Shown here piece after piece: positions 60,780 to 62,802 of a DNA stretch of 64,000 nt. The notes under the pieces are model-generated. The model was not told the DNA's origin. It ran no database searches and saw only the letters and a program-made list of their open reading frames with translations. The stretch comes from Anodontia alba. Lineage: Eukaryota > Mollusca > Bivalvia > Lucinida > Lucinidae. The stretch covers positions 134,002,112 to 134,066,111 of the forward strand of contig OZ024823.1 in assembly GCA_964016985.1 (NCBI GenBank), in the 5' to 3' direction. Made by a program: the position numbers and the translations under genes. The first letter of the stretch is position 1. Each line of letters starts with the position of its first letter.

Positions 60780-62802
60780 ATATATATTTGTGTGTGTGTT
60801 TGTTTGTGTGGTCATCGCTCGAAAGGATCATTCCATTCCATAAATGATCTTTCACCACTGCCGGTGTTATTGCCGTGTGACGGCCTTAGCATGTCCCCCG
60901 TACTTAACTATAGTGTAGTTTATACTTTCTTGTTCTTTTGTATTTTGTGATCATCGAGCCCATTCCGGGTGTCTTAAAATACGTTCAATTTTGCCAAGTA
61001 GCTGGTTTAGGCTGGCCAGGTCTCATCAGTGATCCTAAGATTACTGAGCTATTTTGAAATGAATTATTGTGCCAAATAGCTATAAAAATAAAGGTAAGAG
61101 AAAAGTCCAAGGAATGCCACAATCACAAACCGCAGCCCTTCCCAGACACCAAGAGGAAGAGGAAACCGACAAAACCAAACAAGCACAAATCGAACAAACG
61201 TACGAAAAGCACTAAGATTAGCTCTCTCTTCCCCAAGCGAGGTAATCGCAATGCTAAAAGGACTGAAAAACACAAGAACAAAATAACACAAGGTAAGACA
61301 TTCTTACGACTTGATAGCCGTAACAAAGGAATGAAGCATAGCTGAAAAAATTTCCACGCCTTTCGCGGGAATCGAACCCGGTCCTCCCGGTTAAAAATCC
61401 AATGCTCTAACCACTGAGCCAAAGAGTCGACTCCCTGACGCAGTTGTCAGAGATTGAATATATACTTAGAAGCTATGCGTAATCTGCCAAGGCAGATAAT
61501 CGAAGGTAGGAGTGCTCGGTCGTAACACTCCCCCTCTTCAAGGAAGTCATCATTTATGATGACGTGAAGCCATTTTCGGCGTATAAAGTCCAATCTCGGA
61601 CAAGCCCCCATCTTACGACTTGATAGCCGTAACAAAGGAATGAAGCATAGCTGAAAAAATTTCCACGCCTTTCGCGGGAATCGAACCCGGTCCTCCCGGT
61701 TAAAAATCCAATGCTCTAACCACTGAGCCAAAGAGTCGACTCCCTGACGCAGTTGTCAGAGATTGAATATATACTTAGAAGCTATGCGTAATCTGCCAAG
61801 GCAGATAATCGAAGGTAGGAGTGCTCGGTCGTAACAACATAAAACAAATCGCCTCGTAGAATAAACCACAAAGCAACAAAGAGTAAGACTAATACCGGGG
61901 CTAGTTTAGGCAGTCCAGGTCTCATCAGTAATCCTATGCATCCTATGAACACTGATGAGACCTGGCCAGCCTAAACTAGCTATTTGAAACAATAAACTTC
62001 GAGACGAACTATTTTCCTTCTCTATGCGCGTGTACATTTAGCAAGGATTATTTCTTTTATAATCTTATTGTTCTTCAGAACTGCAATTCTTATCTAAATG
62101 CATAGGGTGTGTAAGTTACAAATAAAATTCTAAAGGGGTGACCTTTGCGAGCAATGAACACATACACAAGACTGAAAACAGTCGATGTGTTAGTTGTCTG
62201 GGCCAGGCTAGATAGTTCCTGTCAATTAGGCCTCATCAGTATTTCATACATTTATTACTGAATGAATCAAACACCAAAAGTATGCACAAAAATGCTAAAA
62301 ATGTAACCATCATACACCTTTAAAAAAACAGAAAAGAAAGTCGTGTTCGACCGTTTATCTTTTCATCTTTATACTAACGAACAAACATTAGTCGAAATTC
62401 TTTACCGCACGTGGTTTGACCAGAAAGTGAATCTGCCATGCATTTCATAGTGAGCACGGTTTGGGTCAGTATCTGTCAAAAGTCTTCTTGTTACTTTCAT
62501 AACTAAACTCAGTGAAGATAGGGATGACTTTTACATTCTGCGCTAATAAAAAGCCAGTGTTTTTGTTTCCAGAGAATAGAGTAAAAGAAACAATGGCTTA
62601 ATTATGTTTTTGTTTTTATTTTAAGGGTGAAATATTCTGGCTAGCAACACCAAATGAGGAGGCACCACTAAACGCAGCTCCAATGCCAGACACTGGGAAC
62701 TCCAGCCAACTGTATCTGTCTGTCTCTGACTTCATTGCAAACACGCTGTTATACAACGCTCAGAAACATGGGATCCTTGTTTACAATTTGACGAAAAAGG
62801 AT
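39199..62802 (+). CDS. BPI/LBP-family LPS-binding protein gene, exons 1-8 (partial)
   Basis: Eight plus-strand exons were read by eye: 39199-39322, 40606-40693, 42578-42700, 47159-47229, 49653-49810, 51312-51375, 57943-58034, 62626-62802. All introns are GT-AG and all phases join (1, 2, 2, 1, 0, 1, 0). They give about 299 residues from Met at 39199; an in-frame ATG at 39172 would add nine. The product starts with a signal peptide (KVVLVVIAIWCYI), then NPGCKLKITQKGLDY, the hallmark start of the BPI/LBP/PLTP/CETP family. The N-terminal barrel follows, with Cys in VTNCQG and in NSQIC spaced 39 residues apart, as for the conserved disulphide of BPI. Exon 8 (GEIFW...LYLSVSDFIANTLLYNAQKHGILVYNL) matches the central linker. 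Family members bind lipopolysaccharide and can kill Gram-negative bacteria; a secreted innate-immune role is inferred. The C-terminal barrel should lie beyond the window. The N-terminal domain lacks roughly 11 residues between exons 2 and 3. Confidence 0.93.
40606..40693 (+). CDS. BPI-like exon 2
   Basis: Acceptor tttttttttccag, donor AAA|gtaagac. Encodes ANDLAIDFLDSQLKSFTIP and SGSNYQVS. It corresponds to the first amphipathic helix and following strand of the BPI barrel. Shorter than the vertebrate exon by about 11 codons. Confidence 0.9.
41200..41441. mobile_element. fold-back element, family 'cgaggttataaaac', copy 3
   Basis: In BPI intron 2. Left 'ctataaaacttgttgttatg', right 'aagttttataacctcgggcc', with inverted internal 'atgctca' words. 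Confidence 0.72.
41521..41737. mobile_element. fold-back element, family 'cgaggttataaaac', copy 4
   Basis: In BPI intron 2. 'cccctggttataaaactaag' on the left; 'catgctcagctgagttgggc' and 'aataacctttgggtc' on the right. Confidence 0.75.
42301..42430. repeat. 66-bp tandem duplication
   Basis: Two nearly identical units starting 'cagttcctgcgaacacggc' (42301 and 42367), in BPI intron 2 about 150 bp before exon 3. Very recent by identity. Confidence 0.92.
42578..42700 (+). CDS. BPI-like exon 3
   Basis: Acceptor ctctttttag, donor AAT|gtaagtg. Encodes IKLTDFTPPSSRISTSP then DKGLRWKASNGYIRLEANF. It lines up with the family's REFxLPSSxISxxPxxGLxxSISNAxIxIxGxW stretch. Confidence 0.9.
43838..44164. 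mobile_element. MITE family M1 copy with duplicated hairpin arm
   Basis: Same ends as 15673-15950. The distal arm 'ggcggttctaacgagtaccc' plus 'atctatgttttgag' occurs twice in a row (about 43980-44018 and 44019-44056), giving three arm copies instead of two. In BPI intron 3. Confidence 0.85.
44165..45439. other. intron 3 sequence with simple repeats
   Basis: Contains a GT-rich stretch near 44590-44620, A-tracts at about 44703-44723 and 44766-44819, and (TAA)n at about 44899-44922. No exon supported. Confidence 0.6.
45440..45880. repeat. imperfect tandem array of ~30-bp AT-rich units
   Basis: About a dozen diverged units built on 'gagatatctgcatttcaatt' and close variants. In BPI intron 3. Spurious ORFs arise from the array. 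Confidence 0.8.
46154..46197. repeat. (AAAT)n microsatellite
   Basis: About eleven uninterrupted AAAT units. Confidence 0.95.
46198..47158. other. intron 3, distal part, no exon seen
   Basis: A G-tract lies near 46900-46921. No gene. Confidence 0.5.
47159..47229 (+). CDS. BPI-like exon 4
   Basis: Acceptor atttgcag, donor TTAG|gtacta. Encodes FFWISGKFSAKFSGVNFDV then GITL, matching the family's SGxFDxSxxGxxI strand pair. Short (71 bp), but both phases fit its neighbours exactly. Confidence 0.88.
47330..47600. mobile_element. fold-back MITE, family M3 copy, reversed
   Basis: Reversed relative to 32237-32590: it opens with a decayed hairpin ('tgtcgatttaatgacgcc', 'gacaatgaaaccgatgattt') and ends with 'gacgtcgaatttccgaca'. 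In BPI intron 4. Confidence 0.75.
47601..49164. other. intron 4, no exon seen
   Basis: Two related stretches near 48080-48160 and 48180-48270 share 'cacgcgagcgtgcaaa'-type words. No gene. Confidence 0.5.
49165..49262 (-). mobile_element. degenerate tRNA-derived SINE head
   Basis: On the minus strand: A-box-like TGGCGTAATGGTTAGC, B-box-like GGTTGAATCAC, then an A/T-run (T on this strand) after about 75 bp. Too degenerate for a tRNA gene. Confidence 0.55.
49653..49810 (+). CDS. BPI-like exon 5, first disulphide cysteine
   Basis: Acceptor ctatttacatag, donor CAG|gtgagt. Encodes KDNNTGLGSISVTNCQG, then SNVDLLFHGGWAWLYNFF and NAIKVSLNSQ. Contains the first disulphide Cys and a possible N-glycosylation site (NNT). 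A fold-back element starts only 17 bp beyond the donor. Confidence 0.93.
49827..50084. mobile_element. fold-back element, family 'cgaggttataaaac', copy 5
   Basis: Left 'ggctccaaggttatagaac' and right 'gttttataacctcggggcc'; inverted 'catgctcaactcagctgag' words on both sides. Starts 17 bp after the donor of BPI exon 5. Confidence 0.85.
50085..51311. other. intron 5, no exon seen
   Basis: An A-tract of about 35 bp lies at 50391-50425. No gene. Confidence 0.5.
51312..51375 (+). CDS. BPI-like exon 6, second disulphide cysteine
   Basis: Acceptor ttctatctcag, donor CTA|gtaagt. Encodes ICTIGTLAVNTNVNNMIKEL. The Cys directly after the exon-5 Gln is the partner cysteine. Confidence 0.88.
51770..52560. 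repeat. tandem array of ~150-bp diverged units in intron 6
   Basis: Four to five units, each carrying a variant of 'ttccgctcgataa', 'ttgataaaattttgtatgca', 'ttgacaagttct' and 'gcgacaagttttctga'. Pieces of one more unit reappear at 56300-56410, on the far side of the LINE. Confidence 0.75.
52671..56002 (+). pseudogene. LINE ORF: 2A leader, endonuclease, reverse transcriptase
   Basis: Likely start at 52671. A hydrophobic leader (FLFLLVSNLITWLLSLLL) leads into CGDIETNPGP. The endonuclease frame shifts twice, once near 52915 and once in a run of seven T near 52970, and has a TGA in place of a Trp codon near 53150. From 53177 the frame holds endonuclease C-terminus, linker and RT. Stops occur at 54329-54331 and about 54462. 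RT motifs: FCDISKAFDRVWH, GVPQGSILGPLLFL and FADDTSL. More frameshifts follow near 55075, 55245 and 55320 and near 55705. The copy is inactive. Compared with the LINE at 28.66 kb it has many more lesions, so it is older. Confidence 0.9.
52761..52811 (+). other. 2A-like ribosome-skipping motif
   Basis: Codes for LLSLLLQCGDIETNPGP. It fits the D-(V/I)-E-x-N-P-G-P consensus exactly; in 2A peptides the chain is released between the last Gly and Pro without a stop codon. 2A-like sequences are known at the N-termini of some AP-endonuclease-type non-LTR retrotransposons in invertebrates. The hydrophobic stretch just before it resembles a signal sequence. Confidence 0.88.
56110..56154. repeat. (CT)n microsatellite
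   Basis: CT repeats interrupted by a C-run, shortly after the end of the LINE frame. Confidence 0.93.
56441..56640 (-). repeat. basic-ORF repeat family, copy C
   Basis: Minus-strand frame open through the whole conserved block (VREKSRECYNHK, KRKRKPTKPSKHK, SLFPKRGNRNTKRAEK). It lacks the upstream part seen in copies A, B and D. Confidence 0.72.
56760..57500. repeat. tandem array of ~145-bp diverged units
   Basis: Opens with 'agctcatggtgaacttttat' and 'gtccgtcagccgtcg', then about five units repeating 'ccaaaccg...taaccatttt', 'caggaatgttccttagg' and 'tggtc...ctgaaattgct'. Arrays of this type are widespread in bivalve genomes. In BPI intron 6. Confidence 0.75.
57574..57890. mobile_element. 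fold-back MITE, family M3 copy 3
   Basis: Best hairpin of the family: 'ttatggtcgcaaattccgtt' pairs with 'aacagaatttgcggccataa', and 'catttggggagg' with 'cctccccaaatg'-like ends. Its right end is about 50 bp before BPI exon 7. Confidence 0.82.
57943..58034 (+). CDS. BPI-like exon 7
   Basis: Acceptor acccttacag, donor AAG|gtatga. Encodes MVILANDFLLDYRLTMDPVY then TADYFETYHK, matching the family's KIDxxxxIDYxLxxPP segment at the end of the N-terminal barrel. Confidence 0.88.
58035..59659. other. intron 7, proximal part, simple repeats only
   Basis: (TTTA)n at about 58901-58945 and a CA-rich microsatellite at about 59231-59292. No exon supported. Confidence 0.6.
59660..59936. mobile_element. 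MITE family M1 copy, intact
   Basis: 277 bp, same ends and the same central hairpin ('gaaccgcctcggcgaggcgg') as 15673-15950. In BPI intron 7. Confidence 0.85.
60240..61060. repeat. three tandem units interrupted by (TA)n
   Basis: Each unit runs from 'gg(g/a)tcattcc', through 'aaaacgtct.c' and 'tagtttatat.ttcttgtc', to 'gatcactgagccca.tccggg' and 'tcactgatgaggcc'. Starts lie near 60303, 60550 and 60825. The second unit is split by the (TA)n at 60683-60787. Single units or fragments occur at 14010-14215, 59600 and 62200. Confidence 0.75.
60683..60787. repeat. (TA)n microsatellite
   Basis: About 50 TA units with a single TTTA interruption near 60765. Confidence 0.95.
61302..61527 (-). repeat. 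TRIM LTR, 3' copy (minus-strand sense)
   Basis: 226 bp. Contains the tRNA-like segment at 61358-61428 and an AT-rich 'tatata' near 61458 that could act as a promoter element. Minus-strand ORFs across it are incidental. Confidence 0.9.
61358..61428 (-). repeat. tRNA-like sequence in the 3' LTR
   Basis: On the minus strand, A box TGGCTCAGTGG (61411-61421) and B box GGTTCGATTCC (61368-61378) match the Pol III promoter consensus at tRNA-like spacing. The anticodon-loop position reads like TTT. The acceptor and T stems have mismatches, so it is probably not a working tRNA. The same block lies at 61667-61737 in the other LTR. Confidence 0.82.
61528..61539 (-). promoter_or_regulatory. polypurine tract of the TRIM
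   Basis: Minus strand GAAGAGGGGGAG, immediately upstream of the 3' LTR: the expected primer site for plus-strand DNA synthesis. Confidence 0.85.
61546..61563. other. hairpin in the TRIM internal region
   Basis: GTCATCA-TTTA-TGATGAC, a 7-bp stem with a 4-base loop in the 83-bp core. It could be a dimerisation or packaging signal; this is inference only. Confidence 0.5.
61593..61610 (-). promoter_or_regulatory. primer-binding site of the TRIM, tRNA-Pro type
   Basis: Minus strand TGGGGGCTTGTCCGAGAT starts at the first base after the 5' LTR. Its complement ends ...GCCCCCA, as a tRNA-Pro 3' end with CCA would. Two positions differ from the well-known retroviral tRNA-Pro site. Confidence 0.85.
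61611..61836 (-). repeat. TRIM LTR, 5' copy (minus-strand sense)
   Basis: 226 bp, no difference from the 61302-61527 copy seen by eye. Carries the second tRNA-like block at 61667-61737. Confidence 0.9.
61900..61982. repeat. 83-bp palindrome next to the TRIM host repeat
   Basis: Left 'gctagtttaggcagtccagg' and 'tctcatcagt'; right 'actgatgaga' and 'cctggccagcctaaactagc'. Related to 'ggtttaggctggccaggtct' at 61004. Confidence 0.8.
61983..62625. other. intron 7, distal part, no exon seen
   Basis: A fragment of the 60-kb repeat family lies near 62150-62250. Otherwise non-coding up to the exon 8 acceptor. Confidence 0.5.
62626..62802 (+). CDS. BPI-like exon 8, last exon in window
   Basis: Acceptor tttttattttaag, donor GAT|gtaaat. 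Encodes GEIFWLATPNEEAPLNAAP, then LYLSVSDFIANTLLYNAQKH and GILVYNL. It corresponds to the GEFY...PPF...LYLGLSDYxFNxAxxVYxxAGxL region. A possible N-glycosylation site (NSS) is present. Confidence 0.92.

What the first reader, a model, noticed from the sequence alone, without database searches (positions are those of the whole stretch)
61302..61836. Complete, apparently very young TRIM retrotransposon whose LTRs contain a tRNA-like Pol III promoter
Seen: two 226-bp direct repeats with no difference found by eye, an 83-bp core, a primer-binding site starting at the first core base, a purine tract at the last, and a 4-bp ACAT duplication. Each LTR holds a tRNA-like block with good A and B boxes. 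Known: TRIMs exist in plants, ants and, I believe, bivalves; Cassandra TRIMs of plants carry 5S rRNA-derived Pol III promoters in their LTRs. Inference: this element may use a tRNA-type Pol III promoter in a similar way, which would be a second case of an LTR capturing a Pol III gene.
Basis: partly seen in the sequence, partly recalled or inferred. Interest (0 to 1): 0.88.

Follow-up and report, generated by a model that had tools for sequence, protein, structure and literature searches.

The report
Young Helenus-type mini-retrotransposon with tRNA-like LTRs
This is a 535-base jumping element with no recognisable protein gene, one of many copies in a genome whose chromosome lengths match the clam Anodontia alba, and its two identical end repeats each carry a tRNA-like block that likely serves as its promoter; the kind was described in 2024 as Helenus, so this is a member of a known class in a new branch of clams.

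Summary
Window 61302-61836 is a complete TRIM on the minus strand: two identical 226-bp LTRs, an 83-bp core, a tRNA-Pro-type primer site, a purine tract and ACAT on both sides, with a tRNA-like block in each LTR. Forty loci examined share the structure, 33 with an exact target duplication. A paralogous empty site lies in the same window.

The novelty claim fails: Kojima 2024 (PMC10886601) described this class as Helenus, including bivalve families with tRNA-Pro primer sites and 4-bp duplications.

What is added: (1) The host assembly matches Anodontia alba chromosome by chromosome, a heterodont clam, outside the bivalve subclass for which Helenus was reported. (2) The primer site is shared with Gypsy-type elements of this genome. 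(3) The LTRs keep A and B boxes and two T-runs that could end Pol III transcription, and none of 108 has a polyadenylation hexamer. The T-runs are a real problem for simple Pol III transcription of the whole element. Which polymerase transcribes it is untested.

The parts
61298..61301 (.). target-site duplication ACAT (left on + strand)
61302..61527 (-). 3' LTR, 226 bp
61528..61610 (-). core (internal region), 83 bp; no Pfam match in the two open stretches that run through the element
61528..61539 (-). polypurine tract GAAGAGGGGGAG
   Evidence: 12 of 12 purines in 42 of 45 cores, 11 of 12 in the other 3
61593..61610 (-). primer-binding site, tRNA-Pro type, 2 mismatches in 18 to the form found perfect in 20 of 45 cores
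61611..61836 (-). 5' LTR, 226 bp, identical to the 3' LTR
61837..61840 (.). target-site duplication ACAT (right on + strand)
61357..61428 (-). tRNA-like block in the 3' LTR (LTR positions 100-171)
   Evidence: Rfam RF00005 29.9 bits; ARAGORN
61666..61737 (-). tRNA-like block in the 5' LTR
   Evidence: Rfam RF00005 29.9 bits; ARAGORN
61718..61729 (-). A box of the 5' LTR, LTR 108-119 (3' LTR copy at 61409-61420)
   Evidence: motif intact in 104 of 108 distinct LTRs
61677..61687 (-). B box GGTTCGATTCC of the 5' LTR, LTR 150-160 (3' LTR copy at 61368-61378)
   Evidence: intact in 97 of 108 distinct LTRs
61702..61706 (-). T5 run at the anticodon-loop position of the 5' LTR, LTR 131-135 (3' LTR copy at 61393-61397); possible Pol III stop
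   Evidence: run of 4 or more in 105 of 108
61654..61659 (-). T6 run after the tRNA-like block of the 5' LTR, LTR 178-183 (3' LTR copy at 61345-61350); Pol III terminator-like
   Evidence: run of 4 or more in 107 of 108
61768..61773 (-). TATATA of the 5' LTR, LTR 64-69 (3' LTR copy at 61459-61464), 43 bp upstream of the first T of the A box
   Evidence: TATATA in 102 of 108
23837..24107 (+). paralogous empty site: another copy of the host repeat in which the element sits, unbroken across the junction, 93.0% identical over 271 bp

Best explanation
The element is a 535-bp LTR retrotransposon on the minus strand with no recognisable protein gene, a TRIM with the features of Helenus, whose tRNA-like LTR block likely recruits RNA polymerase III and which is predicted to be copied in trans by a tRNA-Pro-primed Ty3/Gypsy element. 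Shown: identical LTRs, PBS, PPT, 4-bp duplications, many dispersed copies, tandem and solo forms, and a primer site shared with Gypsy-type elements of the same genome. Inferred: transcription starts near the 5' end of the tRNA-like block of the 5' LTR (about LTR 97-100), must pass the T5 and T6 runs there some of the time, and ends at the T6 run of the 3' LTR. That would give an RNA of about 390 nt with an R region of about 85 nt at both ends (the tRNA-like block up to T6), enough for the first strand transfer. Reverse transcription would start from tRNA-Pro at the PBS, and the second strand from the PPT. An integrase making 4-bp staggered cuts would insert the product. The tRNA-like block is probably kept for its promoter boxes and not as a tRNA, since its acceptor stem is mispaired.
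For: Structure. Recurrence: 45 matches at 95% identity or more (44 over all 535 bp, one over 533), falling at 40 loci; the first look had 1933 candidates, of which 40 were scored. 33 of 40 loci have exact duplications, 31 of exactly 4 bp. The target existed before: another copy of the host repeat in the window runs through the junction without a gap. PBS: 20 of 45 cores match TGGGGGCTCGTCCGGGAT perfectly and all 45 are within 3 mismatches. The same 18-mer lies next to Gypsy-type elements (pattern: 10 hits in the genome, 0 in the reversed-pattern control; RT, RNase H and integrase in Gypsy order in L064; L062 has LTRs, the PBS 3 nt downstream and ACAA on both sides). tRNA-like block. A and B boxes diverge 0.7% and 1.5% against 16.6% just after the B box (LTR 161-177) in 108 distinct LTRs. 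No AATAAA or ATTAAA in 108 of 108 LTRs, while the two Gypsy-type LTR sides looked at each have AATAAA. Known class: PMC10886601.
Against: No RNA data, so neither polymerase is shown. A T5 run lies between the A and B boxes and a T6 run just after the block; both could stop Pol III inside the 5' LTR, and they are kept, not purged. TATATA stands where a Pol II TATA box could start RNA at nearly the same place. The low divergence of the boxes is only mildly unusual: 4.6% of random pairs of stretches of the same lengths are as low, and LTR 1-99 is also low (2.1%). The LTR sample is the best matches to two queries, so it favours conserved copies. The block does not fold better than shuffles (z 0.34) and only just passes Rfam's cut-off. 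No Gypsy element sharing LTR or core sequence beyond the PBS was found. Absence of a polyA hexamer is weak: only 8.6% of shuffled LTRs have one. 7 of 40 loci have no duplication.
Confidence: 0.78

Rival explanations
1. The same TRIM is transcribed by RNA polymerase II from the TATATA at LTR 64-69, and the tRNA-like block is a passenger inherited from an old SINE or tRNA insertion.
For: TATATA is kept in 102 of 108 LTRs, 43 bp upstream of the A box in 97 of the 98 LTRs where both motifs could be measured. T5 and T6 runs would stop Pol III early. The tRNA fold is broken.
Against: No polyA hexamer in any of 108 LTRs. The A and B boxes are among the least changed parts while the neighbouring acceptor arm has drifted.
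Confidence: 0.3
2. Pol III is recruited but makes only a short RNA of about 85 nt ending at T6; full-length templates are rare read-through or Pol II products, so the block acts as a decoy or a chromatin opener.
For: T-run of 4 or more in 107 of 108 LTRs after the block and in 105 of 108 within it. There is no other T-run of 4 or more in the LTR or core of the window copy.
Against: The many dispersed copies show that full-length templates are made. For Cassandra, a paper passage presumes read-through of the intervening LTRs (PMC7215508, passage).
Confidence: 0.25
3. A local segmental duplication or two tandem tRNA-derived repeats, not a retrotransposon.
For: Identical repeats side by side.
Against: Dispersed full copies, varied 4-bp duplications, empty-site paralog, PBS and PPT.
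Confidence: 0.01

Closest known systems
Helenus (Kojima 2024, PMC10886601; abstract, Results, Discussion, figure legends and tables read, supplement not read)
   Same: TRIM with a tRNA-derived block in the LTR; box A TRGCY...YGG and box B GGTTC; PBS and PPT; 4-bp duplications in animals; bivalve families with tRNA-Pro primer sites shared with Gypsy; total length within 311-1263 bp; molluscan examples aligned there to tRNA-Lys-TTT
   Different: The paper lists bivalve Helenus from five orders of Pteriomorphia only; this host matches a lucinid, Euheterodonta. No sequence comparison with the described families was possible here. Its main text mentions terminators only for Cassandra.
Cassandra (plants; PMC7215508 passages, PMC10886601 passage and Discussion)
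   Same: TRIM with a Pol III promoter block in the LTR; tandem LTR-core arrays
   Different: Block derives from 5S rRNA, not tRNA; PMC10886601 calls it the only validated Pol III TRIM lineage
biv-TRIM (PMC6934838; abstract, first part of Results, passages)
   Same: Bivalve TRIM of nearly the same size, found also in heterodonts: 202-218-bp repeats, 77-80-bp core, GGGGAGA purine tract, tandem forms
   Different: Its conserved core segment TGATCCCAAAGGAC is in 0 of 45 cores here. No canonical PBS could be assigned there. The words 'polymerase III' and 'box' do not occur in its main text.
Ajax (nemerteans, PMC10886601)
   Same: TRIM with a Pol III-gene fragment in the LTR
   Different: 5S rRNA fragment, 5-bp duplications

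Membership tests
TRIM | direct LTR-like repeats around a short core without protein genes, under about 1 kb in all | tested here: met
   226 + 83 + 226 bp; 40 of 40 loci; no Pfam match in the two open stretches
TRIM | PBS at the start and PPT at the end of the core | tested here: met
   45 of 45 cores within 3 mismatches of the tRNA-Pro 18-mer; 42 of 45 with 12 of 12 purines at the end
TRIM | target-site duplications | tested here: met
   33 of 40 loci
Helenus | tRNA-derived sequence in the LTR with A and B boxes | tested here: met
   RF00005 29.9 bits in both LTRs; boxes in 104 and 97 of 108 LTRs
Helenus | 4-bp duplications in animal members | tested here: met
   31 of 40 exactly 4 bp, 1 of 5 bp, 1 of 8 bp in an AT repeat, 7 none
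Helenus | PBS region shared with autonomous Gypsy elements in animals | tested here: met
   same 18-mer next to Gypsy-type elements; no other shared sequence found
Helenus | sequence relationship to a described Helenus family | not testable with these tools
   no Repbase or eukaryote nucleotide collection at hand
Helenus | transcription by RNA polymerase III (proposed for the class, not validated) | not testable with these tools
   no RNA data; PMC10886601 itself calls it unvalidated
biv-TRIM | conserved core segment TGATCCCAAAGGAC | tested here: not met
   0 of 45 cores
Cassandra | 5S rRNA-derived block in the LTR | tested here: not met
   no 5S match at the gathering level in the window, only tRNA

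The most novel reading that the evidence does not exclude
A Helenus of heterodont clams in which the tRNA-like block is the whole R region. Pol III would start at its 5' edge and stop at the T6 run behind it, and the two T-runs kept in each LTR would act as a leaky switch: ignored in the first LTR, obeyed in the second. This would be the Pol III counterpart of a retroviral polyA site in R. Its presence in a lucinid would put bivalve Helenus before the split of Pteriomorphia and Heteroconchia, or show transfer between them or a separate birth.
Probability: 0.3. Interest if true: 0.6.

Novelty: new member of a known kind. Interest (0 to 1): 0.35.

Why it matters
It gives a large, recently active copy set in one chromosome-scale genome on which the unvalidated Pol III step of Helenus can be tested, and it names a concrete obstacle (two kept T-runs per LTR) that any Pol III model must explain. 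It also takes bivalve Helenus outside Pteriomorphia, which bears on the published dating of its origin to the ancestor of that subclass. It does not found a new class.

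Tried and rejected
Truncation idea. A pattern search for A boxes with foreign upstream sequence gave 24 hits. I fetched regions covering 13 of the 24. Seven of the loci seemed to start at LTR 97-107, which looked like RNA 5' ends. I drop it for two reasons. The pattern by design finds only breaks in that stretch. With longer flanks, L101 and L102 read as internal U3 deletions (an LTR-like start remains, in L102 behind a 4-bp duplication), and both 3' LTRs run to position 226 instead of stopping at T6. 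One control anchor gave 11 hits; the one fetched aligned from LTR 3, so it was no truncation. Two further control anchors were sent but did not complete; a third, planned in the notebook, was not sent.

Source of the tRNA-like block: no free tRNA gene was found by ARAGORN in the 7 regions, which cover 9 of the 24 hits; two hits are strongly divergent relatives (L089, L095). No SINE source was identified; 11 hits were never fetched.

First host guess withdrawn: I had taken the host for Mercenaria mercenaria from its 1.86 Gb and 19 contigs numbered C1-C19 (PMC8905726, section 5). On recheck only 18 contigs are large (C11 is 413 kb), and the lengths match another species. A search with a window protein gave only unnamed relatives.

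Hammerhead ribozyme idea for CTGATGAG motifs near the element: no Rfam hammerhead match at E up to 5 or 1.

Relatives in IMG/VR by one LTR 26-mer: 0.

tRNA-Pro gene of the host: not completed, so the tRNA-Pro name rests on my recall of that tRNA and on PMC10886601, not on the host's own tRNA gene.

Total copy number: only candidate counts were obtained (1933 for the element, 1686 for the core, 2508 for a divergent LTR; 40 scored in each). Solo LTRs against full elements were not counted genome-wide.

Full report
What is there. The two repeats are 226 bp, identical, and 309 bp apart start to start. The core is 83 bp. Read on the minus strand the element starts TGTTACGAC and ends GTCGTAAGA. The core starts with TGGGGGCTTGTCCGAGAT and ends with GAAGAGGGGGAG. 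ACAT flanks it. In each LTR, Rfam places a full-length tRNA model at LTR 100-171 with 29.9 bits, just above the curated cut-off of 29. Several stem pairs are broken, and the single-strand fold is no better than shuffles. It is tRNA-like, not a working tRNA. Two open stretches of 102 and 107 codons (stop to stop) run through the element; neither has a Pfam match.

It is a mobile element. The window lies on contig C3 of a 1.86-Gb assembly. The element has 45 matches at 95-100% identity, 44 over all 535 bp and one over 533; the first look had 1933 candidates, of which 40 were scored. The 45 matches fall at 40 loci, of which I fetched 39 beside the window. 33 of 40 have an exact duplication of at least 4 bp at the LTR ends (31 exactly 4, one 5, one 8 in an AT repeat, 7 none), against a mean of 1.2 when right flanks are shuffled among loci. 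Some loci share the six flanking bases on both sides (L010 with L047, L036 with L039, nearly so L035 with L046), so they may be duplicated insertions and not all 40 are independent. 5 of 40 loci hold three LTRs and two cores, the array form known from Cassandra and biv-TRIM. In a second sample of 20 loci from the divergent-LTR search, L084 is a solo LTR with GTAT on both sides and L082 a probable one with an imperfect duplication.

Empty site. The element sits in a repeat that occurs again in the window. With one ACAT removed and the flanks joined, the copy at 23837-24107 aligns for 271 bp without a gap at 93.0%. The copy at 7617-7862 also spans the junction, but with 11 nt of gaps right at it. 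The copy at 56438-56636 stops 13 bp short of the junction and does not count.

Age. The LTR pair differs at 0 of 226 positions; 5 of 40 loci have identical pairs and the median of the two-LTR loci is 3 substitutions. The nearest other copy scored is 98% identical. The insertion is recent within its family, or its LTRs were converted.

Primer and helper. 20 of 45 cores carry TGGGGGCTCGTCCGGGAT exactly and all 45 are within 3 mismatches; the window copy has 2. I recognise this as the complement of the 3' end of tRNA-Pro from memory; PMC10886601 also lists tRNA-Pro among bivalve Helenus primers. A pattern that keeps this 18-mer but excludes the TRIM core gave 10 hits in the genome and none for the reversed control. 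Two are divergent relatives of the element (L048, L052). One is a TRIM followed by an extra perfect 18-nt site (L057). Seven belong to other elements, of what look like three families, one copy with a TRIM inserted right behind the 18-mer (L054). L064 encodes RT, RNase H and integrase in Gypsy order; L060 has RT and RNase H matches. L062 shows 208-bp LTRs at 99%, the PBS 3 nt after the LTR, and ACAA on both sides, so its family also makes 4-bp duplications. No LTR or core sequence beyond the PBS is shared, so the helper is predicted from primer and cut size only.

Promoter. In 108 distinct LTRs (85 LTRs from the 40 loci and 35 from 22 further loci; 120 before removing duplicates) the A box is intact in 104 and the B box in 97; divergence is 0.7% and 1.5%, against 2.1% for LTR 1-99, 3.4% for the whole block and 16.6% for LTR 161-177 just behind the B box. 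Random pairs of stretches of the same lengths reach the value of the boxes in 4.6% of draws, so this is suggestive only. No LTR has AATAAA or ATTAAA, while the two Gypsy-type LTR sides looked at do; shuffled LTRs have one in 8.6%, so this too is weak.

The problem. The window copy has T5 at LTR 131-135, between the boxes, and T6 at LTR 178-183, behind the block, and no other T-run of 4 or more in LTR or core. A run of 4 or more is kept in 105 and 107 of 108 LTRs. Runs of this kind end Pol III transcription (recalled). So Pol III must read through both in the 5' LTR for a full template to exist. This is the same logic as a retroviral polyA site in R. Passages on Cassandra report transcription from the first LTR to the block of the last and presume read-through of LTRs in arrays. 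TATATA at LTR 64-69, kept in 102 of 108, is equally fit for Pol II. I therefore commit to Pol III with read-through as most likely, and keep Pol II as the main rival.

What is known. Kojima 2024 defines Helenus as TRIMs with a tRNA-like LTR block, in fungi, a lycophyte and six animal phyla, with 51 families in five orders of pteriomorph bivalves, 4-bp duplications in animals, and Gypsy-shared PBSs including tRNA-Pro. I read its abstract, Results, Discussion, legends and tables, not the supplement. Every Helenus feature I could test is met. Searches of the held library for TRIMp3, for Helenus with LTR retrotransposon, for tRNA with Pol III promoter, TRIM and solo LTR, and for Lucinidae with LTR retrotransposon and miniature list no other study of tRNA-bearing TRIMs that I recognised from titles; I did not open the 2026 meeting report that names Helenus.

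Host. The 18 large contigs (158.84, 147.77, 143.40, 126.89, 126.83, 116.17, 114.10 Mb and so on down to 44.36) match the chromosome table of Anodontia alba xbAnoAlba1.1 (PMC13033139, passages) within 0.02 Mb, except that C10 falls short of its chromosome 10 by 0.42 Mb, about the length of C11 (0.413 Mb). Total 1862.6 against 1862.85 Mb, N50 114.1 Mb in both, and the 18,475-bp contig C317 against an 18.48-kb mitochondrion. The assembly here has 317 contigs against 336 scaffolds in the paper. The window would lie on chromosome 3. Anodontia alba is a lucinid: Euheterodonta, Imparidentia, Lucinida. Helenus was reported in bivalves only from Pteriomorphia, and its origin was dated to the ancestor of that subclass. 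Whether the element here descends from a common ancestor, came by transfer or arose separately cannot be told without the other sequences.

Verdict: a real, recent, well-formed copy of a known kind of element, in a branch of bivalves where it had not been reported by the defining paper, with one useful open question attached.

Noticed in passing
G000 contig C56:1951-3285 (L110): A 17.2-kb contig of this clam assembly carries a cytochrome oxidase gene 98% identical to the nudibranch Facelina bostoniensis and only 66% identical to the one on C317, the contig that fits the clam's mitochondrion; it looks like sea-slug mitochondrial DNA left in the assembly.
   Followed up: partly
61000-61041 and 61940-61981; 61900-61980: Inverted arms of 42 bp (90%) enclose the host repeat and the element, and an 81-bp near-palindrome with CTCATCAGT/ACTGATGAG lies just right of it; similar motifs at 8339, 14076, 59638, 60455, 62232. 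No hammerhead by Rfam; possibly a terminal-inverted-repeat element.
   Followed up: partly
59752-59850: Near-perfect palindrome with a sub-threshold mir-2329 hit on both strands; the surrounding repeat recurs at 15672-15950, 37590-37859 and 43838-44167. Likely a MITE.
   Followed up: no
7617-7862, 23837-24107, 56438-56636, 61090-61299 with 61837-61899: Dispersed host repeat (89-94% identical copies) that holds the element.
   Followed up: partly
L058 from 2203 (G000 C19:35067208): A TRIM 3' LTR followed by a perfect 18-nt tRNA-Pro-type primer site and then unrelated DNA, though its own core PBS has a mismatch; it looks like a copy of the primer tRNA's 3' end left by reverse transcription.
   Followed up: partly
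L103 from 214: A shortened LTR followed by 18 nt of primer-site-like sequence (one mismatch) and then unrelated DNA, the same pattern as in L058.
   Followed up: partly
L088 (G000 C9:82172450-82172850): Four tRNA-like blocks at a 69-bp spacing in the LTR of one copy: local amplification of the block.
   Followed up: no
12160-13845: Intact 561-aa reading frame with a sub-cut-off SOCS box; two unnamed relatives at 48% and 44% identity.
   Followed up: partly
28643-30094 and 53153-55105: LINE-type reverse transcriptase and endonuclease regions in pieces on the + strand.
   Followed up: no
37748-38803: Tandem array with a spacing of about 246 bp.
   Followed up: no
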